From contig JAMPIT010000884.1 in assembly GCA_026261815.1 (NCBI GenBank), forward strand, positions 14,149,001 through 14,213,000: a stretch of 64,000 nt of DNA, given 5' to 3'. Position numbers and translations under genes: made by a program. Positions 41,701 to 63,669 of the stretch are shown here, piece after piece (position 1 is the first letter of the stretch; each line of letters begins with the position of its first letter). Below the pieces are notes generated by a model. The model had not been told where the DNA came from. It saw only the letters and a list, made by a program, of their open reading frames with translations, and searched no databases. Source of the DNA: Monarcha castaneiventris obscurior. Its lineage: Eukaryota > Chordata > Aves > Passeriformes > Monarchidae.

Positions 41701-42384
41701 GAGAATGCCATGAAGAGAAATGCAGTCTTTGTCTTTAGGAGACATGGTAATGACTGGTCCAAGTGACTTGCCTGTGGTCTCACAAAATATCTAAATATAA
41801 GAAAGGGAAAATCCCTGTCTCTTGAGACTCCCTCACTGCTTGCTTCCCCACAGCAAGGGTCTCTGATGTGCTATAAGCTCCAAATCCTAATACAGTTCAA
41901 TCAGACTATTTTTTTAAGTAACTCAGCTAAGCAGCATCTCTGAATGAGAAACTTAATCTGCAGTGACAAGAGAAAATTAAGTTTATTTTTCACAAAGAAC
42001 ATATTCATCCAAAGGTGCTTGCTTCTTACGATTTCAATCTGCATGATTATGTCTCTGTCAGTCTATAATTAATAGCTTAAACTTCACTTTGAGTGAAAAC
42101 TAATTTTTATTTAGGTTTCAATTCCCAGAGAACAGAATTAGTAAGGCAAAAAAAATGTCATCAATAAGGTCACAGGCAAGCAGGTTAGAAGAAAAGATAA
42201 GCATTTATATTTTTCAATTCCATTCCCCTGCTCACTGTGGTGGCTGAACTGCAAAGCAATAGGGAAGCTGTGCAAATTATACCATGTGAGAGTGTGGATG
42301 GAACTTTAAATACTCAGATGCCTTAGAATAAAACAGAAAATAGTTTAGAAATAAAGCTTATAAGGATTCTTGTACTACATTCTT
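38768..42384. other. Non-coding stretch between PIK3C2G exon and the repeat-bounded block
   Basis: About 3.6 kb of AT-rich sequence. It is presumably PIK3C2G intron or upstream region. One weak exon-like frame at 40308-40400 was considered and rejected. No mobile element was recognised. Confidence 0.6.
42378..42384. repeat. 7-bp outer direct repeat, left (CATTCTT)
   Basis: CATTCTT directly before the left copy of the long direct repeat; the same 7 bp lies directly after the right copy at 63663-63669. This placement is what a target-site duplication would give for the whole block. Confidence 0.6.
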
Positions 42385-42997
42385 ATTAAATTAAAATGTG
42401 AAGGTTGTGGGGGTTATAGGGCTCACAGAGGTGGCTACTTGCTCCCCAAAGTGCTATGTGAGAACAGCACCTCGGGTACAGCCTCAGCTGTTGCAGCCCC
42501 TCGTTTGCCCAGCGCAGCTGGAAGCGCTGGTGGTATTCAACCCCACACCTTAGGCTGGATAGCTCAATATTACCAGAGACAAGGAGCCAAGGAGGGCCCA
42601 ACGCCGCCCAGGAATTCCATGGAGCTGGTTTGTTTCATCCACAGAGGTGGACAGGCGGAGAGAGGACGGCGAAGAGGAGGACACATGGGCTGGGCAGCCC
42701 TTACAGAGTGATCTGAGGGCACAGGGGCGGTACAGAGGCATGGCCGAGGAACGCAGCCAATGGACAGAGGGAAGGGGCAGGGAGAGGACCAGGGCAGGGA
42801 GCAGCCACACAGGCTGCTGGGAGAGGTGGTTTTACATCCACGGGGGCTAGGGGTAAAGTTACATTCTAACCGCGAAGGCTTGTGGGAGAGGCTTTTCCTT
42901 TAGAGGTCAGAAGATACATTGTTAAATGCCTAGGTTTTTCCACCAGCCCATCTCAGCCCTTTTCCCTGGCTCACCAGCTGGCCCAGTGACCCCAACA
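42385..42997. repeat. Long direct repeat R, left copy (613 bp)
   Basis: Starts ATTAAATTAAAATGTGAAGG and ends GTGACCCCAACA. The right copy at 63051-63662 is in the same orientation and nearly identical: only a small change in the GCGCAGCTGG segment, one T/C change and one A/T change near the start were seen by eye. GC-rich in its centre. It begins near TG and ends CA like an LTR, but no polyadenylation signal or adjacent primer-binding site was seen, so the class is uncertain. The open frames in it have no recognised similarity. Confidence 0.93.
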
Positions 42998-44609
42998 TAG
43001 ACCCCAGAAGCCAGGCGGATAATTGTGAGAGAAACTGGTGCCAGGACAGGAAAATCCCACTGAGGGTTGCTATTTCCAGTGAAAAGATTGGTTAGACTCA
43101 AACACCGAGGAGGCTTTACGCAATCTGTGGGGAGGAGAAGGAATGATTCAACAGTGTTTCCAGTTAAGAAAGTTATTAACTGTTCCTGGCCTCGTCCCTT
43201 CATCTTCAGGGAGCAGCTGTTCAAATTCGACCAGGCAAAACTTGGGCAGCTTATCTAAACCAGGTGGCATGAAAGGAACTTCGGTGTGCAGGAGAAAATA
43301 AGTTTTGTCTCTAGGCGAACAGATTGGGGCAGGGTTTATCTGTGGCTCTGCGCTCCCATAGAGCCCGAGAGCAGCCGGGTGCTGGTAACGATCAAAGAGA
43401 GCTGGGGCCGCATCAGGCAGCCTGTTCCTAACCCAAAATACAGCATTTAGCCCAGATGAGAACCTGAGATGGGGCTTTGGGATCCTAGACTGTGATCATT
43501 GTGTCTTGTACAGCACTCCTGAGATACTCAGAATTTCTGCTTTTCCTCTGAGCCTGATTCCCAGCAGGCTGGGGCCGGGTGGACCAGGGAATGCTGAGGG
43601 GGCCATGACTCCAAGGCTGTTTGGGAATTCCTGTCCAACCGTGCCAGCCTGCCCTGGAACTGCACAGCCCAATCCTCACATGCTGAAATGAATCAAAGTT
43701 GTTTAGTCTGCTTGAGCAACCAGCATTCTTGGGGTCAAATAAAAATTCTCTGTGAAGCAGATGGTGCAGTTCAGCCCCAATTGCCCAGCTTGCTTCAGGT
43801 TTCTACAGGTCACTTTTTTGTGCACCACCAGCTTCTGAAAAGTCAAAAAGAGAAAAGGAATCAATAGATAATAAGTAGATTCATAAAAAATCGAGACGCT
43901 GAAATAACACAGTTTTATTCCTGATACCCAGAAGGCAAAAGTTTATTAAGTATCTGCTGGAGCTTCCGGTGTTTTCCTACTTAGTTCTGCAGAGGCTGTG
44001 TCCAAACCCTAAGTATGTTAATCTGCAAAAGGGTGACACAGGGTTTTCCCTGTTGTTAAGACCTGGAAGACTTTGAGGTTTATAAATATAAGGGGGAGTA
44101 ATTGCAAGGCGCTGTACAGTATTTCTATTGGTGTTTTTATAAGTAATAGATTAGAGCTGGACCATGATAGGAAAATAACTTGCTGCAGGAAGAATTTCTT
44201 GGGATAGCTGGTTATTCCCAAAATCTACCACTGTAATTTAGTAAGGAGAAATGGACAACAAGCCATGTCTGATTAACAGCATGCTAATGTTTTGCTCTCT
44301 TCCCGAGTCTGCTCTCAAAAGATCTGAGACAAAGATGAAGGAATTTTAAGAGCTCCTTTGGTTATTTCAGAGGAAGTTTAAAATGGAGAAGGGATTGGGG
44401 TGATTAGAAGGCTGTCATTACCAATCGTTTTCAGTGCTGCCTTTTGTAGCAAAATGTGCCCTGTTGGTGTTGTGGTGGTGCTTAGATTTTCTGAGTCCCT
44501 CAGGCCTGAGTTCGGTTCCCATCCTGGTGGAACTGTCCTGCCTGTTGCTTCCAGGATGCCCTGGAACACATCCCCTGCCCCATCATCCACAGGCTGCTTT
44601 GCTGCACAT
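42998..44609. other. Single-copy segment between left repeat and array gap
   Basis: About 1.6 kb of mixed composition without recognised genes or elements. Its last 17 bp before the gap (44591-44607) match the array unit at 49859-49875. Confidence 0.6.
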
Positions 44610-44709
44610 NNNNNNNNNNNNNNNNNNNNNNNNNNNNNNNNNNNNNNNNNNNNNNNNNNNNNNNNNNNNNNNNNNNNNNNNNNNNNNNNNNNNNNNNNNN
44701 NNNNNNNNN
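44610..44709. other. Assembly gap of 100 N
   Basis: Exactly 100 N, the usual placeholder for a gap of unknown size. It falls at the left edge of the tandem array, so further units may be missing. Confidence 0.99.
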
Positions 44710-44755
44710 CTGCAGCTGGAAGCACAGGGAAAAAGGGAAGGGAAGGGAGTCCCAG

Positions 44756-44795
44756 AGAGAATCGCAGAATGCTTGTGGCTGGAAGGGACCCTGCC
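44756..44795 (-). mobile_element. Short CR1 3' end, unit 1
   Basis: GAGAATCGCAGAATGC followed by GGCTGGAAGGGACC is the reverse complement of a CR1 3' terminus. Only about 40 bp; repeated in units 2 and 3 (next entries). Confidence 0.5.
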
Positions 44796-44893
44796 CATGG
44801 GTTAGGATGGCCTGAGGGAGAGACGCCCGTGGCCCAGGGAAGGTGCAAGTGAGACCATGTGAGGGCAACAAACGGATTTCACTGGATGTGCAT

Positions 44894-44899
44894 TTTATT
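44894..44899 (-). terminator. Polyadenylation signal, array copy 1
   Basis: AATAAA on the minus strand (TTTATT as written), in CTCAATAAAATGCAC, about 1.14 kb after the ORF stop and beyond the TTC tract. Conserved in all three units. Confidence 0.55.
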
Positions 44900-44960
44900 G
44901 AGCAAGAAATGGGAGGGATGCGATTCTAGAGGATGTGTGGATGTGTATTTGAATTTGATC

Positions 44961-45448
44961 TTCTTCTTCTAACTATTTCCTATTTCTTCTTCTTCATCGA
45001 AGTGTTCTTCTTCTTCTTTGCCTTCTTCTTCTTCTTTTTAATTACTGCTGCTACTACTCTTGCTTCTTCTTCTTCTTCGTCTTACTCTTATTCTTCTTAT
45101 TCCTATTTTAATTTTTCTTCTTATTTACAACTACTATTTCTTCTTCTTCTTCTTTATCATATTCTTCTTATTCAAATTAATCTTATTCAATTGTTTTGCT
45201 TATGGTTATTCTTCTTCATATTCTTATTGTTTACTACTATTTCTTCTTCTTCCTATTCTACTTCTTCTTCCTATTCTCTTCTTATTCTACTTCCTATTTT
45301 TATCATTATTCTATTCCTTTTTCTTCTTTTTCCTATTTAGTACTGCTATTTCTTCATCATTATAATCTTCCCATTCCTATTCATACTCCTATTCCTATTC
45401 CTATTCCTATTCGTATTCCTATTCTTATTCCTATTCTTTTTTTTTTCC
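44961..45448. repeat. TTC/TTA-rich pyrimidine tract, unit 1 (about 488 bp)
   Basis: Long imperfect run of TTC, TTA and ATTCCT motifs, ending in poly-T. On the minus strand it is a GAA-rich purine tract within the presumed 3' UTR. It is about 30 bp longer than in units 2 and 3, the main length difference between units. Open frames through it are low-complexity by-products. Confidence 0.95.
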
Positions 45449-46037
45449 TGTGTGAGCAGGATTTTTTAATTTTAATTTTTTTTTTGTTTTTTTGTTTGTA
45501 TTTGTTTTTCTTTTGTTTTAAAGGACTATTTCTTAGACTCACTTCCTTTTGTTGAGTCCAAGTCCTTCAGTCATGTCCGGGGAGGCTCAGATTCAATATC
45601 TGAAGCAGTTTTTCCATGGAAGAGGTGCGAGGCCTTGGAAGAAGTTGCCCGGCGCGGCGGTGGTGGAGTCCTTGTCTCTGGAGCGTTGAGGAGCTGTGCG
45701 GATGTGGCCCTTGGGGCCGTGGTTTTGGGGCGACGCTGCTGCTGCTGCTGCCAGGGTGCCAGTGGCGCTGGGTGACGGGCAGGGTCTCTTGACACGGCCA
45801 TGGCTCCCCGGGCTTCCCCGCCGAGCGCGCCGGCAGCCAGGGCGCTGCGTGGGTGCTGTCTGGGGCTGGCCACGGCGGTGACTTTGGGTGCTGGGGAGAT
45901 GCCCCTGGCACGGCCCAAAGCAGCCGGGGCAGCTCAGGCTGCGGGGCCTGTCCAGGCCAAGGCCGCCCGTGTGGCTCCCGGGGGCCCGCGCAGGCCCCGG
46001 CCCGGCCGCCATCTGCAGGCCCGGGCTGGCGCGGGCG

Positions 46038-47147
46038 CTACTCCTGCGTCCGTGGGGCCAGGCAGCGGCAGCGGAACAGCGCCCGCAGCGCTCGCAGCGC
46101 CCGCCTGAGGCGGCCGGGCCGTTTGCTGGGGGCAGCCGGCTGCGGAGCCGAGGGGCTGCGGGGGCTGTGCGGAGCAGGCCCCGGCTCCTGCCAGGCCAAG
46201 ATGGGAGAAGCCGGGGGTTCCGTGGGGGCTTGGCCTGGCAGCGGGGGACGCGAGGCACAGAGCGGCTCCTGTGCACGCTGCTCGACCCAGGCCTCCCGCG
46301 GGATGGGCGCTGCTGCCAGGCTTCGGCGCCGCACTTCTTCGTGCAGCTCGATGAGGCTGATTCCGTCCCAGGAGGCGTCCTTCTGCAGCGACGGTGCAAT
46401 CTTGACGCAGAAGATGCGCGTGTATTCGGTGCCATCTTCCTGGATGGAAACCTCCTGGTAGACGTACTCTTGCCATTCGCTGAGTTCAGCGTGGCACGGC
46501 TCCGGCTCGATGCTGTCATCCCGGTCACAGAGGTCTTGGGAGCTGGTGGCCTGTCCTTGGGGCAGCTCGAGCTTTGCCACACCTCGGCACTCTGGGGACT
46601 GCTCCAGCTGGGTGTGGTAGTCGCCATCCTCGATGCCTCCAATTGAGGTCCCGTCCTCGCCCCCTTTCTCTGCCCTTTCTGCCTCCTCCTGCTGCTCGTT
46701 ACGGCTCTGCACTCCCAGCGGGCTGGACGAGGGGCTGGGGGGGCAGCAGGGGCTGCGTGCGGCAGGGCCCAGGCTCTGTGCCCCCGCTGATGGCACCTCC
46801 TCGCTTGGGGCAGGAGAACAGGGCTGCTGCTTCTGGCTGCTCTCGCTTCCTTCGCCCTGCTGAGACAACGTCGGGTCACTCACCACTTCTTCCCCTTGGG
46901 CCCCTTCCCACGCGCACAGCTCCTGGGGCTGAACGTCGCTCCGCTGGGCAGGCTCGGCTTCCATTCCGGGTTTCCTGGCCTCCTCTTTGATGGCAAAGGG
47001 CCCCTCCTCCTCTTCAGCCTCTTGCTGTGGCCAGACTGAGGCACTCTGTGCCCCCACCAAGTGCCAGCTCAGGGTCTGCTCTTGTGGCCCGCTGGGCACA
47101 GGGGTGGGTGGCTGGGAGGAGTTGGGCTTTGCCTTGTCCTCTTCCAT
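46038..47147 (-). CDS. Uncharacterised 369-residue protein, array copy 1
   Basis: Intronless ORF, ATG in good context (GAC before, G after), stop at 46038. I do not recognise the family. Visible parts: residues 1-200 acidic, rich in Glu, Gln, Ser and Pro and probably disordered (AEEEEGPF near 43-51, CCPPSPSSSP near 134-143); residues 212-277 look folded (SEWQEYVYQEVSIQEDGTEY, then IFCVKIAP and SLIELHEEVRRR); residues 300-341 are proline-rich; residues 342-362 form a basic, possibly amphipathic helix (RLRRALRALRALF) followed by CRC. No signal peptide or obvious transmembrane segment. The LTR ends 279 bp upstream on the same strand and an AATAAA lies about 1.1 kb after the stop. The protein is identical to that of copy 2. 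Conservation of the full frame in three copies supports coding, but other frames here are also open, so expression must be shown. Confidence 0.65.
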   Translation of the reverse strand: MEEDKAKPNSSQPPTPVPSGPQEQTLSWHLVGAQSASVWPQQEAEEEEGPFAIKEEARKPGMEAEPAQRSDVQPQELCAWEGAQGEEVVSDPTLSQQGEGSESSQKQQPCSPAPSEEVPSAGAQSLGPAARSPCCPPSPSSSPLGVQSRNEQQEEAERAEKGGEDGTSIGGIEDGDYHTQLEQSPECRGVAKLELPQGQATSSQDLCDRDDSIEPEPCHAELSEWQEYVYQEVSIQEDGTEYTRIFCVKIAPSLQKDASWDGISLIELHEEVRRRSLAAAPIPREAWVEQRAQEPLCASRPPLPGQAPTEPPASPILAWQEPGPAPHSPRSPSAPQPAAPSKRPGRLRRALRALRALFRCRCLAPRTQE

Positions 47148-47425
47148 GTCTCAGCTGCTGTAGCACAGAAGGATCGCGGGAGCTGCTTCCTTCTGCGACA
47201 GTGGCTCTCACCGGACTGGGCACTGCAAGGTTCTGCGCCCCTTGGATACCCTCAGCCGGGGCAGGGCTCTGTGATGTCACAAGGGTCTCTGGGCACCACC
47301 ATGCTGCGCACGGCCAAGGGCCCTGACACCACGCGCCTGTGTCACAAAGGGCCGCCCCCGGCGCCCCTTCCTTCAGCAGCCGAGGCTGCTGGAAGTAGCA
47401 CTAAGCAGGCCCTGGCCTTGGGCCC

Positions 47426-48036
47426 TATGCTGGTTTTGGCCAAAATCTAGCAATATATCCTCTGGGAGAAAGTCAGCTTACAACTAGCCTTCCCCCCACT
47501 GGGTTCGGGGAAAAATGTCCTCGAAGGAAAGTGAAGGAGATAAAACCTATTTATTAACAAACACACAGGAAAAGGATAATTATACTAAACAGTAAAACCC
47601 TCACTATAACGAGAAAAACCTGGGAAGAAATTAGAGACCTCTTGTAGGTGTGGTCCCTCCTTCTCGGAGCTGGCATGGGGGGTGGCCTTAGGCCCCCTCC
47701 GGGCCTGAAGAAAAGTTCTCCTGATGTGTTCTGATGTTGAAACAGTCCAGAAGAGGAAAAAAGGAAAAAAACACACAGTTCCAGGAAACATGCCAGAGAA
47801 AAAGGGAAGGGAAAAAAACCCCAAATAGCTGGCTGAAGAGACAGGCACGGGTGCTCCCTCCGTGCTACCGCCGCCAGAGAACGCAGAGCAGTCTCCATCT
47901 CTGTGTCCTTGGGAACTTGCTTTGAAAAGTTCATTTGTTTTTTCCTCCCCTCTCAAGCTCAGTTTAAAGGCACAAAATTAAATTTTTGGCATAGAGCCGT
48001 GAGAGTGGATACACACCATAGAGTCAGCCCAAGACA
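47426..48036 (-). mobile_element. Solo LTR upstream of the array ORF, unit 1
   Basis: A 611-bp LTR on the minus strand, from TGTCTTGGGCTGACTC (at 48036) to the terminus at 47426, flanked by the 5-bp duplication GGCCC (47421-47425 and 48037-48041). It is the same family as the solo LTR at 5104-5769. The terminal CA is mutated to TA on this side in units 1 and 2 but intact in unit 3. It contains the retroviral AATAAA. It lies 279 bp before the ORF start in the same orientation, so it could serve as a promoter. Confidence 0.88.
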
Positions 48037-48220
48037 GGCCCTGGTAGCCCTCGGGCTCAGTGAGGCTTTGGCCACGGTGCCGCTCAGCAGCCCAATCCCC
48101 ACCCTGCAGAGCCCTGGCTTTGGCGGGTGGGCTACTCAGGGCACGAGCCATTGGCCAGCTGGACGCAGCCAGGGGCTGGTGGGCGCTGGCTCCATGCGCA
48201 GCTGCAGGCCGGGGACGAGG

Positions 48221-48475
48221 GGTGTCCCTCAGGGCTGTGCCTGGGCCCTGGGGCTCTTGGGTGGCGTCCCCAAAGGCACAGGCAGGGGATGGAGCTCCCC
48301 CTGGGCGCGTTTGCAGGGGCCGGGGAGCTGAGTGTGGCAGGGGCACCATGGCAGGGTTTGGCCGTGCACGGGGAGCTGGGCAAGCTTGAGAAGTGGCACC
48401 ACGAGAAGCTTACGAGGTCTCCCAAGGCCAAGTGCTGGGTGCTGCACCCGGCCCAGGGCGATCCCCGAGTCCCGG
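48221..48475 (+). mobile_element. Degenerate CR1 reverse-transcriptase fragment, unit 1
   Basis: Phrases GGTGTCCCTCAGGGCTGTG (the CR1 GVPQGS block) and, further on, LGKLEKWHHEKL, KAKCWVLHPAQGDPR, which recall CR1 DLDKLEKWAHENL and KAKCKVLHLGQGNPR. The catalytic FADD region is scrambled. The 238-codon open frame over it is not a plausible host gene. Confidence 0.7.
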
Positions 48476-49080
48476 ATTCCCGCAAGCCGGAAGAGACCTT
48501 CCTATCCCTCAGTTTGGCGCTGCCCCCCCGGCCGCTCCCAGCGCCTCCAGAAGCAGCACTTGGCTGGGCCTTGGACCTTCCCGCTGCCCTTGCCCACTTC
48601 CAGCAGGGCTGGCCCAAGGGGAGCACCCCCAGCCCGTGCCTCTGCCCCACAGCCCCGTGGGCAGCGTGTCCGGCCACCCTGGCTGGGCTCCAGTGGGGAA
48701 TGTCCTTGCAGCAGAAAGTGCCGGAAAGAGCCCAGGGCCAAAGAGTCTCTCCCCTGCTGGCACTGCTTCTTCACAGCATTAAAATATTCCAGTGCTGGAG
48801 TGGGCTGATGGGGGTCTCCCCATCGCACCCAAAAAGAAGCTGATGGTTGGGTATTATTTGAGAATTTCTCTCTAGTTGAGCCTGCCAGGGGGTTATTTGC
48901 AGGGAGAAGCGGATACAATAAATACCACGATGCCTCCTCCAGGGTCTCTGTGTGTTTCAGCACTCTTGGGCTTTCTTGGCACTTCTCAAATGAAAAGAAA
49001 TTCTCGGGGCAGCAGCAATTTTACCTCTCACCATAAAATACTGCTACAAAAGTTGGTTTTCCAGTGCATCCAGCTCTTAC

Positions 49081-49167
49081 TGTGGGTATCCTGGTACGTG
49101 AGGAATTCGACATCCTTTTCTGTAGCCACGGTGTCCTCGTGCATCACCCAGATGTGCTGTTTGCATC
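49081..49167 (-). pseudogene. Exon-like remnant on the minus strand, unit 1
   Basis: An 87-bp open stretch between an acceptor-like CCCCCTCAG and a donor-like GTAAGAG, reading KQHIWVMHEDTVATEKD and on to EFLTYQDTH. I do not recognise the protein. Unit 2 has an identical copy at 54218-54304. In unit 3 the copy has lost one base next to the acceptor, so its frame would shift. Probably a fragment of a captured gene or chance. Confidence 0.25.
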
Positions 49168-49924
49168 CTGAGGGGGCACTGAATATCAGCTCCTGCTCTG
49201 TGTGCTGCTGTGGTGTCAGGCAAAGTTCTGGCACTGTTCCCCATCCTCTGAGTATTCCTTTCCTTCAATAAATTCTACCAAGCCTTGTCTTTAGAGTGCT
49301 GCAAGGCTGGGCAAAAAGGGGCACTTTGCTGGGGGAGAGCAGGGCAGGAGAGGCCTTCAGTGGCCTGGCAAAGATACTCAGAGTTTTTGTTGGTTTCCAT
49401 ATGCAAAAGGATTCCCCTTCCTCAGAGATACGGAGTGATGCTCTTTGCCGTGTGCTCTTTGGTCTCCTGCCTTCCTTTGCCTGTTCTTTTTCCCTCCCAG
49501 TGTCTCCCTTTAGCCAGGGCCGCTCCAGGCCAAAGACCCTCCCCTGATGTTTGGATTTTTTCCCCAATCCAGGAGCTAAACCAGCCCTGGATGAAGTGAC
49601 GGAGGCTGGCAGTGAAATGTCACTGTAAGATCTTGCTCCACTTGGGTTTCAGCCCCTTCAGAGCTTTGCCTTGAAGGGCAGGAACATCTTTTCCTGGCTG
49701 GCAACTGGAATTGCAGCCCATGGCAGGGCGGGCCCTGGGTCCCAGAGGGGCAGTGCCGAGGCTGCCAGGCTGCTGCTCCTGCCGTGCCTCCCCCGGGAGC
49801 TGTGCAGGGCCAGGGGACAAGGTCCAGCAGCCGGGTGGGCTCCCGGAGCAGACAGCAAAGGCTGCTTTGCTGCACGTTCTGCAGCTGGAAGCACAGGGAA
49901 AAAGGGAAGGGAAGGGAGTCCCAG

Positions 49925-49964
49925 AGAGAATCGCAGAATGCTTGTGGCTGGAAGGGACCCTGCC
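49925..49964 (-). mobile_element. Short CR1 3' end, unit 2
   Basis: Same CR1 terminus as in unit 1. Confidence 0.5.
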
Positions 49965-50062
49965 CATGGGTTAGGATGGCCTGAGGGAGAGACGCCCGTG
50001 GCCCAGGGAAGGTGCAAGTGAGACCATGTGAGGGCAACAAACGGATTTCACTGGATGTGCAT

Positions 50063-50068
50063 TTTATT
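50063..50068 (-). terminator. Polyadenylation signal, array copy 2
   Basis: The same minus-strand AATAAA as in unit 1, about 1.1 kb after the ORF stop. Confidence 0.55.
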
Positions 50069-50128
50069 GAGCAAGAAATGGGAGGGATGCGATTCTAAAG
50101 GATGTGTGGATGTGTATTTGAATTTGAT

Positions 50129-50581
50129 CTTCTCCTTCTAACTATTTCCTATTTCTTCTTCTTCATCGAAGTCTTCTCCATCTTCTTTGCCTTCTTCATT
50201 CTTCTTTTTAATGACTGCTGCTACTACTCTTGCTTCTTCTCCTTCTTCCTCTTACTCCCATTCTTCTTATTCCTATTTTAATTTTTCTTCTTATTTACTA
50301 CTAGAATTTCTTCTTCTTCTTCCTTATCATATTCTTCTTATTCTAATTAATCTTATTCACTTGTTTTGCTTATGGTTATTCTTTTTCATATTCTTACTGT
50401 TTACTACTATTTCTTCTTCTTCCTATTCTCTTCTTATTCTACTTCCTATTTTTATCATTATTCTACTCCTTTTTCTTCTTCTTCCTATTTACTACTGCTA
50501 TTTCTTCATCATTATAATCTTCTTATTCCTATTCGTATTCCCATTCCTATTCGTATTCCTAATCCTATTCTTTTTTTTTTC
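50129..50581. repeat. TTC/TTA-rich pyrimidine tract, unit 2
   Basis: About 453 bp, nearly the same as in unit 3 and distinct from unit 1 (for example CTCCTTCTAAC at the start and loss of some repeats). Confidence 0.95.
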
Positions 50582-51174
50582 CTGTGTGAGCAGGATTTTT
50601 TAATTTTTAAATTTTTTTGGGGTTTTTTTGGTTTGTTTTTGTTTTTGTTTTGTTTTGAAGGACTATTTCTTAAACTCACTTCCATTTCTTGAGTCCAAGT
50701 CCTTCAGTTCTGTCCGGGGAGGCTCAGATTCAATATCTGAAGCAGTTTTTCCATGGAAGAGGCATGAGGTGTCGGAAGAAGTTGCCCGGGGCGGCGGTGG
50801 TGGAGTCCTTGTCTCTGGAGCATTGAGGAGCTGTGCGGATGTGGCCCTTGGGGCCGTGGTTTTGGGGCGACGCTGCTGCTGCTGCTGCCAGGGTGCCAGT
50901 GGCGCTGGGTGACGGGCAGGGTCTCTTGACACGGCCATGGCTCCCCGGGCTTCCCCGCCGAGCGCGCCGGCAGCCAGGGCGCTGCGTGGGTGCTGTCTGG
51001 GGCTGGCCACGGCGGTGACTTTGGGTGCTGGGGAGATGCCCCTGGCACGGCCCAAAGCAGCCGGGGCAGCTCAGGCTGCGGGGCCTGTCCAGGCCAAGGC
51101 CGCCCGTGTGGCTCCTGGGGGCCCGCGCAGGCCCCGGCCCGGCCGCCATCTGCAGGCCCGGGCTGGCGCGGGCG

Positions 51175-52284
51175 CTACTCCTGCGTCCGTGGGGCCAGGC
51201 AGCGGCAGCGGAACAGCGCCCGCAGCGCTCGCAGCGCCCGCCTGAGGCGGCCGGGCCGTTTGCTGGGGGCAGCCGGCTGCGGAGCCGAGGGGCTGCGGGG
51301 GCTGTGCGGAGCAGGCCCCGGCTCCTGCCAGGCCAAGATGGGAGAAGCCGGGGGTTCCGTGGGGGCTTGGCCTGGCAGCGGGGGACGCGAGGCACAGAGC
51401 GGCTCCTGTGCACGCTGCTCGACCCAGGCCTCCCGCGGGATGGGCGCTGCTGCCAGGCTTCGGCGCCGCACTTCTTCGTGCAGCTCGATGAGGCTGATTC
51501 CGTCCCAGGAGGCGTCCTTCTGCAGCGACGGTGCAATCTTGACGCAGAAGATGCGCGTGTATTCGGTGCCATCTTCCTGGATGGAAACCTCCTGGTAGAC
51601 GTACTCTTGCCATTCGCTGAGTTCAGCGTGGCACGGCTCCGGCTCGATGCTGTCATCCCGGTCACAGAGGTCTTGGGAGCTGGTGGCCTGTCCTTGGGGC
51701 AGCTCGAGCTTTGCCACACCTCGGCACTCTGGGGACTGCTCCAGCTGGGTGTGGTAGTCGCCATCCTCGATGCCTCCAATTGAGGTCCCGTCCTCGCCCC
51801 CTTTCTCTGCCCTTTCTGCCTCCTCCTGCTGCTCGTTACGGCTCTGCACTCCCAGCGGGCTGGACGAGGGGCTGGGGGGGCAGCAGGGGCTGCGTGCGGC
51901 AGGGCCCAGGCTCTGTGCCCCCGCTGATGGCACCTCCTCGCTTGGGGCAGGAGAACAGGGCTGCTGCTTCTGGCTGCTCTCGCTTCCTTCGCCCTGCTGA
52001 GACAACGTCGGGTCACTCACCACTTCTTCCCCTTGGGCCCCTTCCCACGCGCACAGCTCCTGGGGCTGAACGTCGCTCCGCTGGGCAGGCTCGGCTTCCA
52101 TTCCGGGTTTCCTGGCCTCCTCTTTGATGGCAAAGGGCCCCTCCTCCTCTTCAGCCTCTTGCTGTGGCCAGACTGAGGCACTCTGTGCCCCCACCAAGTG
52201 CCAGCTCAGGGTCTGCTCTTGTGGCCCGCTGGGCACAGGGGTGGGTGGCTGGGAGGAGTTGGGCTTTGCCTTGTCCTCTTCCAT
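51175..52284 (-). CDS. Uncharacterised 369-residue protein, array copy 2
   Basis: Same length and identical protein to copy 1; only isolated nucleotide changes near the 3' end and downstream. The inferred crossover that made unit 2 lies in or just beyond the 3' end of this ORF, so the coding sequence is mostly or entirely of unit-1 type. Acidic disordered N-terminal half, central block near 212-277, basic C-terminal helix with CRC. Function unknown. Confidence 0.65.
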   Translation of the reverse strand: MEEDKAKPNSSQPPTPVPSGPQEQTLSWHLVGAQSASVWPQQEAEEEEGPFAIKEEARKPGMEAEPAQRSDVQPQELCAWEGAQGEEVVSDPTLSQQGEGSESSQKQQPCSPAPSEEVPSAGAQSLGPAARSPCCPPSPSSSPLGVQSRNEQQEEAERAEKGGEDGTSIGGIEDGDYHTQLEQSPECRGVAKLELPQGQATSSQDLCDRDDSIEPEPCHAELSEWQEYVYQEVSIQEDGTEYTRIFCVKIAPSLQKDASWDGISLIELHEEVRRRSLAAAPIPREAWVEQRAQEPLCASRPPLPGQAPTEPPASPILAWQEPGPAPHSPRSPSAPQPAAPSKRPGRLRRALRALRALFRCRCLAPRTQE

Positions 52285-52562
52285 GTCTCAGCTGCTGTAG
52301 CACAGAAGGATCGCGGGAGCTGCTTCCTTCTGCGACAGTGGCTCTCACCGGACTGGGCACTGCAAGGTTCTGCGCCCCTTGGATACCCTCAGCCGGGGCA
52401 GGGCTCTGTGATGTCACAAGGGTCTCTGGGCACCACCATGCTGCGCACGGCCAAGGGCCCTGACACCACGCGCCTGTGTCACAAAGGGCCGCCCCCGGCG
52501 CCCCTTCCTTCAGCAGCCGAGGCTGCTGGAAGTAGCACTAAGCAGGCCCTGGCCTTGGGCCC

Positions 52563-53173
52563 TATGCTGGTTTTGGCCAAAATCTAGCAATATATCCTCT
52601 GGGAGAAAGTCAGCTTACAACTAGCCTTCCCCCCACTGGGTTCGGGGAAAAATGTCCTCGAAGGAAAGTGAAGGAGATAAAACCTATTTATTAACAAACA
52701 CACAGGAAAAGGATAATTATACTAAACAGTAAAACCCTCACTATAACGAGAAAAACCTGGGAAGAAATTAGAGACCTCTTGTAGGTGTGGTCCCTCCTTC
52801 TCGGAGCTGGCATGGGGGGTGGCCTTAGGCCCCCTCCGGGCCTGAAGAAAAGTTCTCCTGATGTGTTCTGATGTTGAAACAGTCCAGAAGAGGAAAAAAG
52901 GAAAAAAACACACAGTTCCAGGAAACATGCCAGAGAAAAAGGGAAGGGAAAAAAACCCCAAATAGCTGGCTGAAGAGACAGGCACGGGTGCTCCCTCCGT
53001 GCTACCGCCGCCAGAGAACGCAGAGCAGTCTCCATCTCTGTGTCCTTGGGAACTTGCTTTGAAAAGTTCATTTGTTTTTTCCTCCCCTCTCAAGCTCAGT
53101 TTAAAGGCACAAAATTAAATTTTTGGCATAGAGCCGTGAGAGTGGATACACACCATAGAGTCAGCCCAAGACA
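52563..53173 (-). mobile_element. Solo LTR upstream of the array ORF, unit 2
   Basis: Same insertion as in unit 1, with GGCCC at 52558-52562 and 53174-53178. The shared position shows the LTR inserted before the array expanded. Confidence 0.88.
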
Positions 53174-53357
53174 GGCCCTGGTAGCCCTCGGGCTCAGTGA
53201 GGCTTTGGCCACGGTGCCGCTCAGCAGCCCAATCCCCACCCTGCAGAGCCCTGGCTTTGGCGGGTGGGCTACTCAGGGCACGAGCCATTGGCCAGCTGGA
53301 CGCAGCCAGGGGCTGGTGGGCGCTGGCTCCATGCGCAGCTGCAGGCCGGGGACGAGG

Positions 53358-53612
53358 GGTGTCCCTCAGGGCTGTGCCTGGGCCCTGGGGCTCTTGGATG
53401 GCGTCCCCAAAGGCACAGGCAGGGGATGGAGCTCCCCCTGGGCGCGTTTGCAGGGGCCGGGGAGCTGAGTGTGGCAGGGGCACCATGGCAGGGTTTGGCC
53501 GTGCACGGGGAGCTGGGCAAGCTTGAGAAGTGGCACCACGAGAAGCTTACGAGGTCTCCCAAGGCCAAGTGCTGGGTGCTGCACCCGGCCCAGGGCGATC
53601 CCCGAGTCCCGG
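53358..53612 (+). mobile_element. Degenerate CR1 reverse-transcriptase fragment, unit 2
   Basis: Same remnant as in unit 1 with one visible difference (GGATGGCGTC instead of GGGTGGCGTC), shared with unit 3. Confidence 0.7.
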
Positions 53613-55063
53613 ATTCCCGCAAGCCGGAAGAGACCTTCCTATCCCTCAGTTTGGCGCTGCCCCCCCGGCCGCTCCCAGCGCCTCCAGAAGCAGCACTTGG
53701 CTGGGCCTTGGACCTTCCCGCTGCCCTTGCCCACTTCCAGCAGGGCTGGCCCAAGGGGAGCACCCCCAGCCCGTGCCTCTGCCCCACAGCCCCGTGGGCA
53801 GCGTGTCCGGCCACCCTGGCTGGGCTCCAGTGGGGAATGTCCTTGCAGCAGAAAGTGCCGGAAAGAGCCCAGGGCCAAAGAGTCTCTCCCCTGCTGGCAC
53901 TGCTTCTTCACAGCATTAAAATATTCCAGTGCTGGAGTGGGCTGATGGGGGTCTCCCCATCGCACCCAAAAAGAAGCTGATGGTTGGGTATTATTTGAGA
54001 ATTTCTCTCTAGTTGAGCCTGCCAGGGGGTTATTTGCAGGGAGAAGCGGATACAATAAATACCACGATGCCTCCTCCAGGGTCTCTGTGTGTTTCAGCAC
54101 TCTTGGGCTTTCTTGGCACTTCTCAAATGAAAAGAAATTCTCGGGGCAGCAGCAATTTTACCTCTCACCATAAAATACTGCTACAAAAGTTGGTTTTCCA
54201 GTGCATCCAGCTCTTACTGTGGGTATCCTGGTACGTGAGGAATTCGACATCCTTTTCTGTAGCCACGGTGTCCTCGTGCATCACCCAGATGTGCTGTTTG
54301 CATCCTGAGGGGGCACTGAATATCAGCTCCTGCTCTGTGTGCTGCTGTGGTGTCAGGCAAAGTTCTGGCACTGTTCCCCATCCTCTGAGTATTCCTTTCC
54401 TTCAATAAATTCTACCAAGCCTTGTCTTTAGAAAGTGCTGCAAGGCTGGGCAAAAAGGGGCACTTTGCTGGGGGAGAGCAGGGCAGGAGAGGCCTTCAGT
54501 GGCCTGGCAAAGATACTCAGAGTTTTTGTTGGTTTCCATATGCAAAAGGATTCCCCTTCCTCAGAGATACGGAGTGATGCTCTTTGCCGTGTGCTCTTTG
54601 GTCTCCTGCCTTCCTTTGCCTGTTCTTTTTCCCTCCCAGTGTCTCCCTTTAGCCAGGGCCGCTCCAGGCCAAAGACCCTCCCCTGATGTTTGGATTTTTT
54701 CCCCAATCCAGGAGCTAAACCAGCCCTGGATGAAGTGACGGAGGCTGGCAGTGAAATGTCACTGTAAGATCTTGCTCCACTTGGGTTTCAGCCCCTTCAG
54801 AGCTTTGCCTTGAAGGGCAGGAACATCTTTTCCTGGCTGGCAACTGGAATTGCAGCCCATGGCAGGGCGGGCCCTGGGTCCCAGAGGGGCAGTGCCGAGG
54901 CTGCCAGGCTGCTGCTCCTGCCGTGCCTCCCCCGGGAGCTGTGCAGGGCCAGGGGACAAGGTCCAGCAGCCGGGTGGGCTCCCGGAGCAGACAGCAAAGG
55001 CTGCTTTGCTGCACGTTCTGCAGCTGGAAGCACAGGGAAAAAGGGAAGGGAAGGGAGTCCCAG

Positions 55064-55207: not shown

Positions 55208-55266
55208 GAGCAAGAAATGGGAGGGATGCGATTCTAAAGGATGTGTGGATGTGTATTTGAATTTGA

Positions 55267-55722: not shown

Positions 55723-56315
55723 CTGTGTGAGCAGGATTTTTTAATTTTTAAATTTTTTTGGGGTTTTTTTGGTTTGTTTTTGTTTTTGTTTTGTTTTGAA
55801 GGACTATTTCTTAAACTCACTTCCATTTCTTGAGTCCAAGTCCTTCAGTTCTGTCCGGGGAGGCTCAGATTCAATATCTGAAGCAGTTTTTCCATGGAAG
55901 AGGCATGAGGTGTCGGAAGAAGTTGCCCGGGGCGGCGGTGGTGGAGTCCTTGTCTCTGGAGCATTGAGGAGCTGTGCGGATGTGGCCCTTGGGGCCGTGG
56001 TTTTGGGGCGACGCTGCTGCTGCTGCTGCCAGGGTGCCAGTGGCGCTGGGTGACGGGCAGGGTCTCTTGACACGGCCATGGCTCCCCGGGCTTCCCCGCC
56101 GAGCGTGCCGGCAGCCAGGGCGCTGCGTGGGTGCTGTCTGGGGCTGGCCACGGCGGTGACTTTGGGTGCTGGGGAGATGCCCCTGGCACGGCCCAAAGCA
56201 GCCGGGGCAGCTCAGGCTGCGGGGCCTGTCCAGGCCAAGGCCGCCCGTGTGGCTCCCGGGGGCCCGCGCAGGCCCCGGCCCGGCCGCCATCTGCAGGCCC
56301 GGGCTGGCGCGGGCG

Positions 56316-57425: not shown

Positions 57426-57703
57426 GTCTGAGCTGCTGTAGCACAGAAGGATCGCGGGAGCTGCTTCCTTCTGCGACAGTGGCTCTCACCGGACTGGGCA
57501 CTGCAAGGTTCTGCGCCCCTTGGATACCCTCAGCCGGGGCAGGGCTCTGTGATGTCACAAGGGTCTCTGGGCACCACCATGCTGCGCACGGCCAAGGGCC
57601 CTGACACCACGCGCCTGTGTCACAAAGGGCCGCCCCCGGCGCCCCTTCCTTCAGCAGCCGAGGCTGCTGGAAGTAGCACTAAGCAGGCCCTGGCCTTGGG
57701 CCC

Positions 57704-58315
57704 TGTGCTGGTTTTGGCCAAAATCGAGCAATATATCCTCTGGGAGAAAGTCAGCTTACAACTAGCCTTCCCCCCACCGGGTTCGGGAAAAAATTCCTCA
57801 AAGGAAAGTGAAGGAGATAAAACCTATTTATTATCAAACACATAGGAAAAGGATAATTATACTAAACAGTAAAACACTCACTATAACGAGAAAAACCTGG
57901 GAAGAAATTAGAGTCCTCTTGTAGGTGTGGTCCCTCCTTCTCGGAGCTGGCATGGGGGGTGGCCTTAGGCCCCCTCCGGGCCTGAAGAAAAGTTCTCCTG
58001 ATGTGTTCTGATGTTGTTGAAACAGTCCAGAAGAGGCATAAAGGAAAAAAAAAACAAAGTTCCAGGAAACATGCCGGAGAAAAAAGGAAGGGAATAAACC
58101 CGAAAAAGCTGGCTGAAGAGACAGTGAAGGATGCTCCCTTCACGCTACCGCCGCCAGAGAACGCAGAGCAGTCTCCATCTCTGTGTACTTGGGAACTTGC
58201 TTTGAAAAGTTCATTTGTTTTTTCCTCCCCACTCAAGCACAATTTAAATGCACAAAATTAAATTTTTGGCATAGAGCCGTGAGAGGGATACACACCATAG
58301 AGTCAGCCCAAGACA
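57704..58315 (-). mobile_element. Solo LTR upstream of the array ORF, unit 3
   Basis: Same insertion, 612 bp, with GGCCC at 57699-57703 and 58316-58320. The outer TGT (CA on the coding strand) is preserved here. It has several private changes, for example in the pyrimidine-rich centre and near the 3' end. Confidence 0.88.
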
Positions 58316-58499
58316 GGCCCTGGTAGCCCTTGGGCTCAGTGAGGCTTTGGCCACAGTGCCGCTCAGCAGCCCGATCCCCACCCTGCAGAGCCCTGGCTTT
58401 GGCGGGTGGGCTACTCAGGGCACGAGCCATTGGCCAGCTGGACGCAGCCAGGGGCAGGTGGGCGCTGGCTCCATGTGCAGCTGCAGGCCGGGGACGAGG

Positions 58500-58755
58500 G
58501 GTGTCCCTCAGGGCTGTGCCTGGGCCCTGGGGCTCTTGGATGGCGTCCCCAAAGGCACAGGCAGGGGATGGAGCTCCCCCTGGGCGCGTTTGCAGGGGCC
58601 GGGGAGCTGAGCGTGGCAGGGGCACCATGGCAGGGTTTGGCCGTGCACGGGGAGCTGGGCAAGCTTGAGAAGTGGCACCACGAGAAGCTTACGAGGTCTC
58701 CCAAGGCCAAGTGCTGGGTGCTGCACCCGGCCCGGGGCGATCCCCGAGTCCCGGA
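58500..58755 (+). mobile_element. Degenerate CR1 reverse-transcriptase fragment, unit 3
   Basis: Same remnant as in units 1 and 2 with a few private changes (for example CCCGGGGCGATCC). Confidence 0.7.
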
Positions 58756-59568
58756 TTCCCGCAAGCCGGAAGAGACCTTCCTATCCCTCAGTTTGGCGCT
58801 GCCCCCCCGGCCGCTCCCAGCGCCTCCAGAAGCAGCACTTGGCTGGGCCTTGGGCCTTCCCGCTGCCCTTGCCCACTGTCAGCAGGGCTGGCCCAAGGGG
58901 AGCACCCCCAGCCCGTGCCTCTGCCCCACAGCCTCGTGGGCAGCGTGTCCGGCCACCCTGGCTGGGCTCCAGTGGGGAATGTCCTTGCAGCAGAAAGTGC
59001 CGGAAAGAGCCCAGGGCCAAAGAGTCTCTCCCCTGCTGGCACTGCTTCTTCACAGCATTAAAATATTCCAGTGCTGGAGTGGGCTGATGGGGGTCTCCCC
59101 ATCGCACCCAAAAAGAAGCTGATGGTTGGGTATTATTTGAGAATTTCTCTCTAGTTGAGCCTGCCAGGGGGTTATTTGCAGGGAGAAGCGGATACAATAA
59201 ATACCACGATGCCTCCTCCAGGGTCTCTGTGTGTTTCAACACTCTTGGGCTTTCTTGACACTTCTCAGAGGGAAGAAATTCTTGGGGCAGCAGCAATTTT
59301 ACCTCTCACCACAAAATACTGCTACAAAAGTTGGTTTTCCAGTGCATCCAGCTCTTACTGTGGGTATCCTGGTACGTGAGGAATTCGGCGTCCTTTTCTG
59401 TAGCCACGGTGTCCTTGTGCATCACCCAGATGTGCTGTTTGCACCTGGGGGGACACTAAATATCAGCTCCTGCTCTGTGTGCTGCTGTGGTGTCAGGCAA
59501 AGTTCTGGCACTGTTCCCCATCCTCTGAGTATTCCTTTCCTTCAATAAATTCTACCAAGCCTTGTCTT

Positions 59569-62500
59569 AAACAATCTTCCAAGTAATTTTATTGCTTTGA
59601 ATTTCTGTTTTTTAAATGTGTATTTTGTCTTGCCATTGCTCCATCTTTGCTTTCGTTCTTAGGGCAGGTTCCTGCATAGTCCATCCCTTCCCAGCTGCAA
59701 TGTTCCCCTTGGACTGGTTTTTATTTTCCAGCCCTGGGGAGGCTGGGTTAGAGCGGGAACACCAGCTTTGGTGACTGGTTTTTGTTTGCTTTAACCTGAA
59801 TTTGCAGGTTTTCCCATCAGTCACAGGAGATAGACCCCACAGCTAAGTTTGTAATTGTTTTTTAGAAACTTGAGCAGATAATGCTTAAACACAAATGGCT
59901 TTTGGAGATTTGTGTAGGTTAATTTGCTCTGTGTTGGGATCTGATGGTTATTGGTGCCCCAACTCACAGAACAGCTGATGCTTTTTTCTTTTTTTTTAAC
60001 CACTTGCTTAATTGTTTTCCCTCTTCAACTCTCATTTTAGTGATGCAAGAACTGTGTCAGCTTTGAAAATATTTGACCATACTTTGAGGATATGTTTATT
60101 TTTTTAAACCAAGAAATACTGTCTCTAGAAAAAGGTTGAGTGGAAGACGATGAGCACGAATGATATATTGTCTTGTTGAGTCATGTTGGGGGCTTTCTTT
60201 CTGTGAAGGATAAACAAAATTTTCGATTATTCAGCTTGTGACGTTTGCAGATCCTATGAAAAGACCGGTTTTGGTTTTCAAACATGGTAGTTAAGTGTCT
60301 GGGCTGAACCGGGGGAGTTCCAGGAGAGCTGGAGGCCCAGGGGGTGCACAGGGATTCCGGGCTGGGGGCATTGGGATTTCTTTTCGTGCATAATTGGTCT
60401 TTGTTTAATCCAAACTGTCCGAACTGCTGCCATTCCCTGCCATTAAGCAGTGTGGATCCTGCTCATCCTGCTCCACATCCTCTGTCATGTTTTCCAGGGT
60501 GGAATTGGCACTCCCTGGAGTGAGCCAAATCCAAAATGGCAGTGTCATTATTTGCATTTTTATTTACCTGGGCTGTGTAAGCACCGTATTTGCCATCATT
60601 GCTCTCAGCTTTCAATACTTATCTGCTACTTGGTGACTTCAGGCAAGTGATTAAAGCCCTCAATCTGTTGGGTGTTAGGGTTCTCTCATTGCAGCTCACA
60701 GGTATTATTCCAGACGTGCTATGTAAGGCAAAACTGTAGGAGAACTTGCTGCTTAAAATGTGGAAAAAAGTGTTGTTACTCCTGTTTTAGTAACACTTGC
60801 AGTAGGGCCTTGTGGACAGTGTAAGGCACTCTGCTAAAAAAGAATTAAAACAACCTTTCTGCTGAATAATAGCTTTTACTTTTGCAGTTACATAATTCTC
60901 TTGTTAAATCTAACAATTCTTTTTTGAAGAATTAATGGAAGTGGTTTAAAGGGATTCCCTCACTATAAGAGATACCTGACAGCAGTGGTGAGTGAGAAAC
61001 ACCAACTGTGTGCAGGTGTCCTCAGCACTGGCAGAAATAGATGCATTTAGGACATGTAAGAAAGGAGGAAAGAGGGAAAAAAAGGCTCTGAAGCCACATC
61101 CTTTTTAAAAATTTATTGCATAAAAGTGCAGCTCAGAGCTTTATTACTGCCCTGCCCTGCCCTGTGTGGCTGCAGAGCAGCCCCTGCGAGGCTGGAGAGC
61201 AGGAGCTGCATTTTGGGTGCCTTTCCTCTAGGAAAACACAGATTTGAGGGTCGCTGATGCTGTGAACTGTGAGGTCTGAATCTCATCCAAGAGATAAAAC
61301 CATTGACACAAAGAACTGCTTTTTGACATCAGCACACTTGTTGGGAATCCACTGCCCTGGATGTGAAGGGTGTTGCTAAAATGATTGGGGAAATGTTATA
61401 TAACTGGTTTTGTGAGGCTGTATTTATTGAATAGGTGTTTATTACCTGCTTTTCACTGGTCCTTCTCAGTGTTACTGCATTCCAGCTACTCCAGAAATAA
61501 GGTGCAGAAAGAATCGTGGCTGAAGTGTCTCCAAGGGCTCCCTTTGGTAGCTCAGATCAAGCAATGTCATCTTCAGCTCAGAACAGCAAATGAAATTACT
61601 GAAATGTGGGGGTTTTGTCCAAGGGCACTAAAGGTGAGCACAAGATTTGGTCACCACACCTGTCCACGGAGTCACCTTGCAGAATTGTTCCATTTACTGG
61701 GCTCTCTTTAGGAAAAGAGAGGAGAGTACACACAAACATGTGGAACAGATTCCCTGGCCAGGCCGTGCCAGGTTTATTTGGACACATAATGAGCTGTGTG
61801 AGGGTTTCAATCCTTGCATTGTAGTGCTGGGACTTGGCTTTTGCTGCTTTTTTCTTCTCCTTTTTTCTTTTTTATCCGGGGACATACGTGGGTTTAGCTA
61901 CACTGATTTTCTTGAGCCACCAGAGTTGTGTGGAACAATTTTAGATCACTGCAAGTCCATAAAGCTGAGTTTGTGTTGATCACTTGAAACGTGGGGTTTT
62001 TCTTGCAGTTTAACAGCGCTGCCCATATTTCCACACAGGCCTGAGGCTCAGCAGGACACGTCATATGCTGCTCCATGAATGTATAGTTTAGCAAGAGTCA
62101 TGAAAAAGGCAGGATTATTTATCTAAAAATTATTAACAGAATTGGCCTTTTCTGAGGGATGGGGTAGTCTCAGTCTCATTATCATTCACAATGAGGCAAC
62201 CCTAGAGACTTTCTGAAGTCAAACATTCTTTGACCTTTCTGAAAAATTAGTCTGTGTGGAAGCACAAAAGGTGTTGATAAACAGATTTTTAGCTTGATGT
62301 GGGGTTACTTTTGTTTTGGGTGTTTTTTTGTTGGAAGTCAGAATATTTTTAAGCTTTCTTCATTCCTAATATCTGAGATCAAAATAACTGCAGAGATAAT
62401 CATTGTATTTTTGATTTCCTCAGCTGAAAATCGGCTCGGATTGTGAAAATGAGAGATAATTGTGTGTTTCCCCCTAGTCCCCTAATGCAATTCTTAGGAA

Positions 62501-63050
62501 TTTGCAAGCCCTTGAACACTATGAAGATGCTCAATGGCATGCAGGGGGGATTGGTCCAGCAGCATCTTCCCTGTGTGTGTCCTGCCCTGAGCCTGGCGTG
62601 GCTGGGCCAGTGCTGGGCCACTGAGTGCTGCTCCTGGAGGGCCAATTGCAGCTGAAATCACACGTAATTAATAAGGCTTTTCATAGATTGGTGCTGGCAA
62701 TGGTGACACCAATGCTGAGCTTAATTCTCCCCTGCGTTTGGCTGTGCTTGGCCTCCATGCCAGAAGCCTCGTGACACCAAGGGTGCCGGGATTTGCCCAG
62801 GCTTTGCCCAGGGTTTCCAGGCTGCAGATCCAGGCAGGGACACTCCTGGCAAAGTGGGCACTGGCTTGGAGAGCCATCAGTGTTCCTGAACACAGATCGG
62901 TTCGAGGAATGTGGCGGTGTTGACACGAATCCATCACTGGGGCAGCCACTTAGAGAAGGCACCTACACAGAGACTGGTTGTTGTTTTGAATTTCCCACCC
63001 AGATCTTCCTCTATCTCAAAATTTGGCTTTAAGAAATGCCGTTTATACCT
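59569..63050. other. Single-copy segment between array and right repeat
   Basis: About 3.5 kb with no gene I can support. Open frames around 61.4-62.0 kb and 62.7-62.9 kb overlap on both strands and lack similarity. No CR1 or LTR was recognised. A CCTGC pentamer run occurs near 61150. Confidence 0.6.
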
Positions 63051-63662
63051 ATTAATTTAAAATGTGAAGGTTGTGGGGGTTATAGGGCTCACAGAGGTGG
63101 CTACTTGCTCCCCAAAGTGCTATGTGAGAACAGCACCTCGGGTACAGCCTCAGCTGTTGCAGCCCCTCGTTTGCCCAGCGCTCTGGAAGCGCTGGTGGTA
63201 TTCAACCCCACACCTTAGGCTGGATAGCTCAATATTACCAGAGACAAGGAGCCAAGGAGGGCCCAACGCCGCCCAGGAATTCCATGGAGCTGGTTTGTTT
63301 CATCCACAGAGGTGGACAGGCGGAGAGAGGACGGCGAAGAGGAGGACACATGGGCTGGGCAGCCCTTACAGAGTGATCTGAGGGCACAGGGGCGGTACAG
63401 AGGCATGGCCGAGGAACGCAGCCAATGGACAGAGGGAAGGGGCAGGGAGAGGACCAGGGCAGGGAGCAGCCACACAGGCTGCTGGGAGAGGTGGTTTTAC
63501 ATCCACGGGGGCTAGGGGTAAAGTTACATTCCAACCGCGAAGGCTTGTGGGAGAGGCTTTTCCTTTAGAGGTCAGAAGATACATTGTTAAATGCCTAGGT
63601 TTTTCCACCAGCCCATCTCAGCCCTTTTCCCTGGCTCACCAGCTGGCCCAGTGACCCCAACA
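63051..63662. repeat. Long direct repeat R, right copy (612 bp)
   Basis: Starts ATTAATTTAAAATGTGAAGG and ends GTGACCCCAACA, same orientation as the left copy 20.7 kb away. Directly followed by CATTCTT, the 7 bp that precede the left copy. Confidence 0.93.
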
Positions 63663-63669
63663 CATTCTT
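63663..63669. repeat. 7-bp outer direct repeat, right (CATTCTT)
   Basis: Matches 42378-42384. If the block is a single insertion this is the second half of its target-site duplication. Confidence 0.6.

What the first reader, a model, noticed from the sequence alone, without database searches (positions are those of the whole stretch)
42378..63669. A 21-kb block bounded by near-identical direct repeats and by a shared 7-bp outer sequence
Seen: repeat R at 42385-42997 and 63051-63662, same orientation, nearly identical; CATTCTT lies just outside the left end and just outside the right end, while the inner flanks (TAGACC after the left copy, TATACCT before the right copy) do not match. Two independent insertions of R would each have their own duplication; instead the outer flanks match each other. 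Inference: either one large element with terminal direct repeats, or a single ancestral R with duplication CATTCTT into which a circular DNA carrying R and the gene array recombined. R-R recombination could also excise the array as a circle.
Basis: partly seen in the sequence, partly recalled or inferred. Interest (0 to 1): 0.82.

Follow-up and report, generated by a model that had tools for sequence, protein, structure and literature searches.

The report
Gene cluster spliced in through LTR
A block of three copies of a bird gene sits between two copies of an old retrovirus remnant, and the sequence at its edges indicates that it came from a gene cluster elsewhere in the genome, probably as a DNA circle that recombined with a matching remnant already here.

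Summary
The repeat pair is real: 614 and 613 bp, 3 substitutions and one 1-base gap. R is the LTR of an endogenous retrovirus dispersed in this genome (40 copies scored of 274 candidates); most solo copies carry 6-bp target-site duplications. The block is not a provirus: no retroviral domain in the ORFs scanned and no proviral inner edges. The inner flanks match as well: outer CATTCT/CATTCT (6/6), inner TATACC/TAGACC (5/6). So two LTR insertion sites, X-R-Y and P-R-Q, are joined crosswise as X-R-Q...P-R-Y. P and Q lie side by side without R in a tandem cluster of the same gene family on contig C263; the block is a circular permutation of it, cut at R. Best reading: a circle from such a cluster, carrying R, recombined with a solo LTR at X-Y. 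Open: the R copies (K2P 0.0049) are far more alike than block and paralogue (0.057), so conversion or a lost donor is needed; an assembly gap makes 21 kb uncertain; no other bird genome could be searched. A known kind of event, unusually legible.

The parts
40884..42383 (+). X: left outer flank, end of the recipient locus; single copy as far as the search sees
   Evidence: 1 match of 1 candidate, itself (the search skips very common words)
42378..42383 (+). CATTCT, left half of the recipient target-site duplication
   Evidence: 6/6 with 63663-63668
42384..42997 (-). R, left copy: LTR, canonical orientation on the minus strand (TGTTGGGG...)
42998..43003 (+). TAGACC, right half of the donor target-site duplication
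   Evidence: 5/6 with 63044-63049; homology of Q to C263 begins right after it
43004..44592 (+). Q: inter-gene spacer of the gene cluster, 93-94% identical to C263:1566940-1568536 and 1576599-1578195
44610..44709 (.). assembly gap (100 N) just inside the array; the sequence on both sides is in register with the array unit, one base missing
44710..49291 (-). b1: gene unit copy 1, 369-aa ORF at 46038-47147 incl. stop
49292..49878 (.). a2: spacer segment, no substitution against a3
49879..54428 (-). b2: gene unit copy 2, ORF 51175-52284; left part like b3, right part like b1
54429..55017 (.). a3: spacer segment
55018..59568 (-). b3: gene unit copy 3, ORF 56316-57425
59569..63049 (+). P: inter-gene spacer, 92-94% identical to C263:1573079-1576594, where Q follows with no R
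63044..63049 (+). TATACC, left half of the donor target-site duplication
   Evidence: the same six bases stand at both C263 P-Q junctions
63050..63662 (-). R, right copy (LTR)
63663..63668 (+). CATTCT, right half of the recipient target-site duplication; Y follows

Best explanation
An LTR-bounded insertional translocation. A solo LTR (R) stood at this locus, X-CATTCT-R-CATTCT-Y. In a tandem gene cluster elsewhere, of the kind now on contig C263, another R stood in the spacer between units, P-TATACC-R-TATACC-Q (the right half now reads TAGACC). Recombination between tandem units released a circle (Q-array-P-R). The circle recombined with the solo LTR, giving X-R-Q-array-P-R-Y. R serves only as shared homology; no retroviral enzyme is needed. 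R was homogenised during or after the event, and the array grew by unequal exchange. Shown: both LTR edge pairs, the crosswise joining, and P-Q joined without R on C263. Inferred: the circle, the order of events, the conversion, the unequal exchange.
For: R is a dispersed LTR family with exact ends. Of the 38 other copies examined, 24 carry a 5-6/6 target-site duplication at the exact R edges, 3 more with a one-base edge shift, 8 have a proviral inner edge by my reading, and 3 stay unexplained. In the window X/Y match 6/6 and P/Q 5/6, while the present neighbours match 2/6 (X/Q) and 3/6 (P/Y). Among 780 pairs of copies only this one matches at least 5/6 in both cross directions while lacking duplications of its own. 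P and Q lie four bases apart without R at C263:1573079-1578195, and P's last 90 bases next to Q at 1566846. Two further paralogues (C263:2.433 Mb, C439:3.3717 Mb) have P joined to Q without the 1.6 kb in the middle. X is single copy. Control: another same-strand R pair, 37 kb apart on C30, has its own 6/6 duplication at each copy.
Against: The two R copies differ by K2P 0.0049, but the block differs from C263 by 0.057-0.059, and R from the nearest other copy examined by about 9%. Two independently inserted LTRs should differ far more, and a crossover between them should leave two chimeras; neither is seen, so conversion, or an R duplicated within the donor, must be added. No extant unit with R between P and Q was found: none of the 6 Q places or 5 P places outside the window shows R beside it in the stretches read. 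C263 has five bases (TCTGG) after TATACC that the window lacks. The inner match is 5/6, chance about 0.007. No circle was observed; no second species or haplotype was available; Y was not tested.
Confidence: 0.66

Rival explanations
1. Linear transfer: the donor cluster carried R in two adjacent tandem units (R-Q-array-P-R), and this stretch was copied or crossed into the solo LTR by ectopic recombination, without a circle.
For: Explains why both R copies are nearly identical (duplicated with the unit). Tandem units are real: two C263 stretches of 5.6 kb are 97.9% identical. Recombination between 548-bp LTRs has inserted 110 kb in humans (PMC4222609: abstract and Discussion read).
Against: Needs R in two adjacent units; no R in the C263 stretch read.
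Confidence: 0.2
2. Assembly error: X-R-Y and P-R-Q are the true loci and the assembler swapped arms at R, then scaffolded the two contigs across the gap because X and Y are neighbours.
For: A 100-N gap lies 1.6 kb inside the block, so one R is on each contig. A swap at R gives this structure, and the two copies themselves are 99.5% identical, which would make a swap easier.
Against: Needs two matching misjoins at a 614-bp repeat, and two unlinked LTRs that are 99.5% alike while the 38 other copies are at most about 91% identical to either. No other N in the 94 kb read around it. The sequencing method is unknown.
Confidence: 0.08
3. A large LTR element (provirus-like or non-autonomous) that captured the gene cluster and inserted as a unit.
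For: Near-identical LTRs and an exact outer 6-bp duplication.
Against: No retroviral domain in the 86 ORFs scanned; no proviral inner edges; inner flanks are cluster spacer, contiguous without R on C263.
Confidence: 0.03

Closest known systems
Human extended pseudoautosomal region (insertional translocation by recombination between 548-bp LTR6B copies; PMC4222609, abstract and Discussion read)
   Same: Recombination between short LTR copies inserts a non-repeat block.
   Different: There a terminal X-Y exchange inserted 110 kb; here the order is permuted relative to the cluster, which points to a circle or a tandem donor.
Cattle insertional translocations through circular intermediates (Durkin et al., known here only through the citation in the PMC4222609 Discussion; that KIT is the gene is recalled)
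   Same: A circle as carrier.
   Different: The cattle junctions were not read; here both recombining sites belong to one LTR family.
Circle-mediated duplications in the human genome (PMC7188851; abstract and section 6 read)
   Same: Permuted paralogous blocks of about 20-130 kb, 95-97% identical.
   Different: Here the junctions are exact LTR edges with two target-site duplications, and the donor-type P-Q join is present.

Membership tests
Provirus / LTR retrotransposon | Two near-identical LTRs with a flanking target-site duplication | tested here: met
Provirus / LTR retrotransposon | Primer-binding-site and polypurine edges inside the LTRs, as in family proviruses | tested here: not met
   inner edges of 8 proviral LTR copies contain AGCCA before R (4) or TCTC after R (4); the window has TTTATACC and TAGACC
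Provirus / LTR retrotransposon | gag/pol coding remains inside | tested here: not met
   0 of 86 ORFs of 60+ aa with a retroviral Pfam match at E 0.05; 43000-50000 and 59500-63050 only, ORFs crossing the gap left out, array copies 2 and 3 mostly not scanned. Pieces of the C405 provirus do give RVP, RVT_1, RVT_thumb and rve (4 of 7 ORFs)
Insertion of a circle by homologous recombination | Inserted order is a circular permutation of the source | tested here: met
   P-Q joined on C263; Q...P in the window; C263 is a paralogue, not the donor copy itself
Insertion of a circle by homologous recombination | Same homology block at both ends, at the permutation point | tested here: met
   R at exact LTR edges
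Insertion of a circle by homologous recombination | Pre-insertion site carries one copy of the homology block | tested here: inconclusive
   implied by CATTCT 6/6; no second haplotype or species available
Insertion of a circle by homologous recombination | The circle itself detected | not testable with these tools
   no reads or circle sequencing
LTR-LTR recombination (LTR6B type; also assumed by the circle model) | Crossover inside the LTRs, leaving two chimeras as diverged as the parent LTRs unless converted | tested here: inconclusive
   expected divergence not seen: the copies differ at 4 alignment columns; conversion would erase it and the parents are unknown

The most novel reading that the evidence does not exclude
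Dispersed solo LTRs act as landing pads for circles shed by tandem gene clusters in the bird germline, a repeatable route by which fast-evolving multicopy genes found new clusters; this one may be recent, polymorphic and reversible by R-R excision.
Probability: 0.2. Interest if true: 0.75.

Novelty: new member of a known kind. Interest (0 to 1): 0.5.

Why it matters
It is an unusually legible example: the recipient target-site duplication, the donor one and an R-free donor-type spacer can all be read from one assembly, so circle-mediated movement of a gene cluster can be tested in a vertebrate germline. It also warns that LTR pairs with a matching target-site duplication are not always proviruses, and that LTR divergence need not date the event.

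Tried and rejected
A provirus or LTR element: rejected on inner edges and content. Two independent R insertions in place (X-R-Q and P-R-Y): rejected, own-site matches 2/6 and 3/6. Array arising in place with spacer a made of P and Q: a matches Q only over 20 bases near its end (E 0.002) and P only at chance level. An idea that the gap hides the missing spacer a1 (note) was dropped: contig A already joins Q to the array's a-b boundary before the gap. Searches that gave nothing: two R patterns in viral contigs, R in phage records, Rfam on the window at gathering scores, four array ORFs in Pfam, one in PDB sequences. The right flank Y could not be tested for copy number. Literature: six searches, of which I saw listings with starts of abstracts; from three papers I read the parts named. 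No listed title or abstract start describes such a case in a bird, which is not proof of absence.

Full report
OBSERVATION. The pair R is real: 42384-42997 and 63050-63662, same orientation, 3 substitutions and one single-base gap. CATTCT lies just outside both outer edges. Random pairs of local positions match 6/6 with P 0.0004 and at least 5/6 with P 0.007 (200,000 draws). A 100-N gap lies at 44610-44709.

WHAT R IS. R is a dispersed family in this genome (1.08 Gb in 688 contigs; 40 copies scored of 274 candidates, so a lower bound). I read the flanks of all 40 scored copies. Without the window's two, 14 of 38 have 6/6 and 10 have 5/6 target-site duplications at the exact R edges; 3 more reach 5-6/6 with a one-base shift of an edge (L012, L018, L044); 8 have a proviral inner edge by my reading (L004, L009, L011, L015, L025, L039, L040, L041); 3 remain unexplained (L027 4/6, L036 2/6, L043 3/6). 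Two pairs are proviruses with matching outer duplications: L015/L011 on C405 (LTRs 99.8% identical) and L041/L039 on C218 (97.9%). A third same-strand pair with proviral inner edges, L040/L009 on C587, has no matching outer duplication. A same-strand pair 37 kb apart on C30 (L037, L026) has its own 6/6 duplication at each copy, that is, two independent insertions. Pieces of the C405 provirus give retroviral protease, reverse transcriptase with thumb, and integrase core (4 of 7 ORFs). So R is the LTR of a retrovirus-like family with 6-bp duplications, in canonical orientation on the minus strand. That this suits the ERVK-like group is recalled, not tested.

THE BLOCK IS NOT A PROVIRUS. Family proviruses show AGCCA just before R or TCTC just after it on their inner sides; the window has TTTATACC and TAGACC. 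None of 86 stop-to-stop ORFs of at least 60 aa from 43000-50000 and 59500-63050 has a retroviral Pfam match at E 0.05. ORFs crossing the gap were left out, and array copies 2 and 3 were mostly not scanned, being 97-99% identical to copy 1.

WHERE THE INSIDE COMES FROM. Q (42998-44590) matches seven places of seven candidates, itself included; the two best others are C263:1566940-1568532 and 1576599-1578191 at 93%, and both begin at query base 7, just after TAGACC. P (59569-63050, the last base being R's first) matches six places of six candidates, itself included; the best other is C263:1573079-1576594 at 92%. On C263 P and Q are therefore neighbours, four bases between the two matches, and R has no match in C263:1548001-1598000; P's last 90 bases also stand next to Q at 1566935/1566940. 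The site reads GTTTATACC-TCTGG-CCAGAAGCC there, against GTTTATACC-[R]-TAGACC-CCAGAAGCC in the window: TATACC is the donor target, with one changed base in the right copy and a 5-base difference beyond it. At C263:2.433 Mb and C439:3.3717 Mb, P (to base 3237) is joined to Q (from base 1380 or 1381) without the middle, between gene units; whether that is a loss there or a gain in the others is open. P-Q is thus an inter-gene spacer in four places, three of them incomplete. The array unit has paralogues on C263 (1.57 and 2.41-2.44 Mb), C439 and C363. Whether C263 and C673 belong to one chromosome is unknown. X is single copy; Y did not complete.

MECHANISM. Present neighbours X-R-Q and P-R-Y match only 2/6 and 3/6, whereas X/Y match 6/6 and P/Q 5/6. 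Across all 780 pairs of the 40 copies, only this pair matches at least 5/6 in both cross directions while lacking its own duplications; L010/L017 also reach 5 and 5, but each has its own 6/6. The order Q...P is the permutation expected if a circle (or one period of a tandem array) was opened at R and joined to an R between X and Y. A tandem yeast gene array is known to shed circles (PMC6890164, start of abstract in the listing), LTR copies can drive insertional translocation (PMC4222609, abstract and Discussion), and ectopic conversion between LTRs is reported as common in humans (PMC4921805, abstract and opening).

TIMING, AND WHAT DOES NOT FIT. K2P distances: R pair 0.0049; window Q and P to C263 0.057-0.059; C263 Q copies to each other 0.0076. 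In a midpoint-rooted tree of the 40 LTRs the window pair has tips of 0.002-0.004 on a stem of 0.040, against a median tip of 0.046. Either the event is old and R was converted recently, or it is recent and the donor unit with R has been lost or not assembled. I cannot tell which. If two LTRs of the usual divergence had simply crossed over, the copies should now differ at many more than 4 columns.

THE ARRAY. The three copies differ as a mosaic: 45 of the 47 substitutions between copies 1 and 2 fall in their left kilobase, those between copies 2 and 3 mostly to the right of it, and the two a segments have no substitution. Unequal exchange in a two-copy array explains this. All three units carry another dispersed repeat of about 610 bp (unit 3274-3882; other copies 88-93% identical; probably an LTR, not tested), which the C263 units spanning that point lack. 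The 369-aa ORF is intact in all three. Of seven further copies examined, five on C263 have ORFs of 368-372 aa with the same start and end; one on C263 (L062) is broken, and one on C439 (L063) lacks the same start. Simple dN/dS between complete ORFs is mostly 0.45-0.65. Annotated relatives are predicted proteins of songbirds (Vidua, Taeniopygia, Corvus, Oenanthe, Anomalospiza; 5 of 11 hits, the rest unnamed), with no Pfam domain listed.

VERDICT. A structural event of known kind, preserved with unusual clarity; the circle is the likeliest carrier but not shown.

Noticed in passing
46038-47147, 51175-52284, 56316-57425 (minus strand): A fast-evolving multicopy songbird gene family without Pfam domain, alike at its basic cysteine-bearing C-terminus; further copies on C263, C439 and C363.
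   Followed up: partly
47435-48037, 52572-53174, 57713-58316 and 5103-5761: A second dispersed repeat of about 610 bp (probably an LTR) inside each array unit, lacking in the C263 units that span that point; a relative about 70% identical lies at 5103-5761 in opposite orientation, and another at C673:14223848-14224480.
   Followed up: partly
44592-44609: Q is joined to the array at the a-b boundary, skipping segment a, which follows Q in the other paralogues; the assembly gap begins about 18 bases later.
   Followed up: partly
L015 and L011 (C405:225703-233537): A provirus of the R family with nearly identical LTRs and an exact duplication, so the family may have been active recently (or its LTRs converted).
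   Followed up: no
L027, L036, L043; L040/L009 on C587: R copies, and one proviral pair, whose flanks lack a matching duplication: possible further LTR-LTR exchanges.
   Followed up: no
1-42384: Among 92 of 98 ORFs scanned, single ORFs match a RING finger and a reverse transcriptase domain; a Yae1_N match at 673-1227 lies over a GAAG microsatellite (731-999) and is probably low complexity.
   Followed up: no
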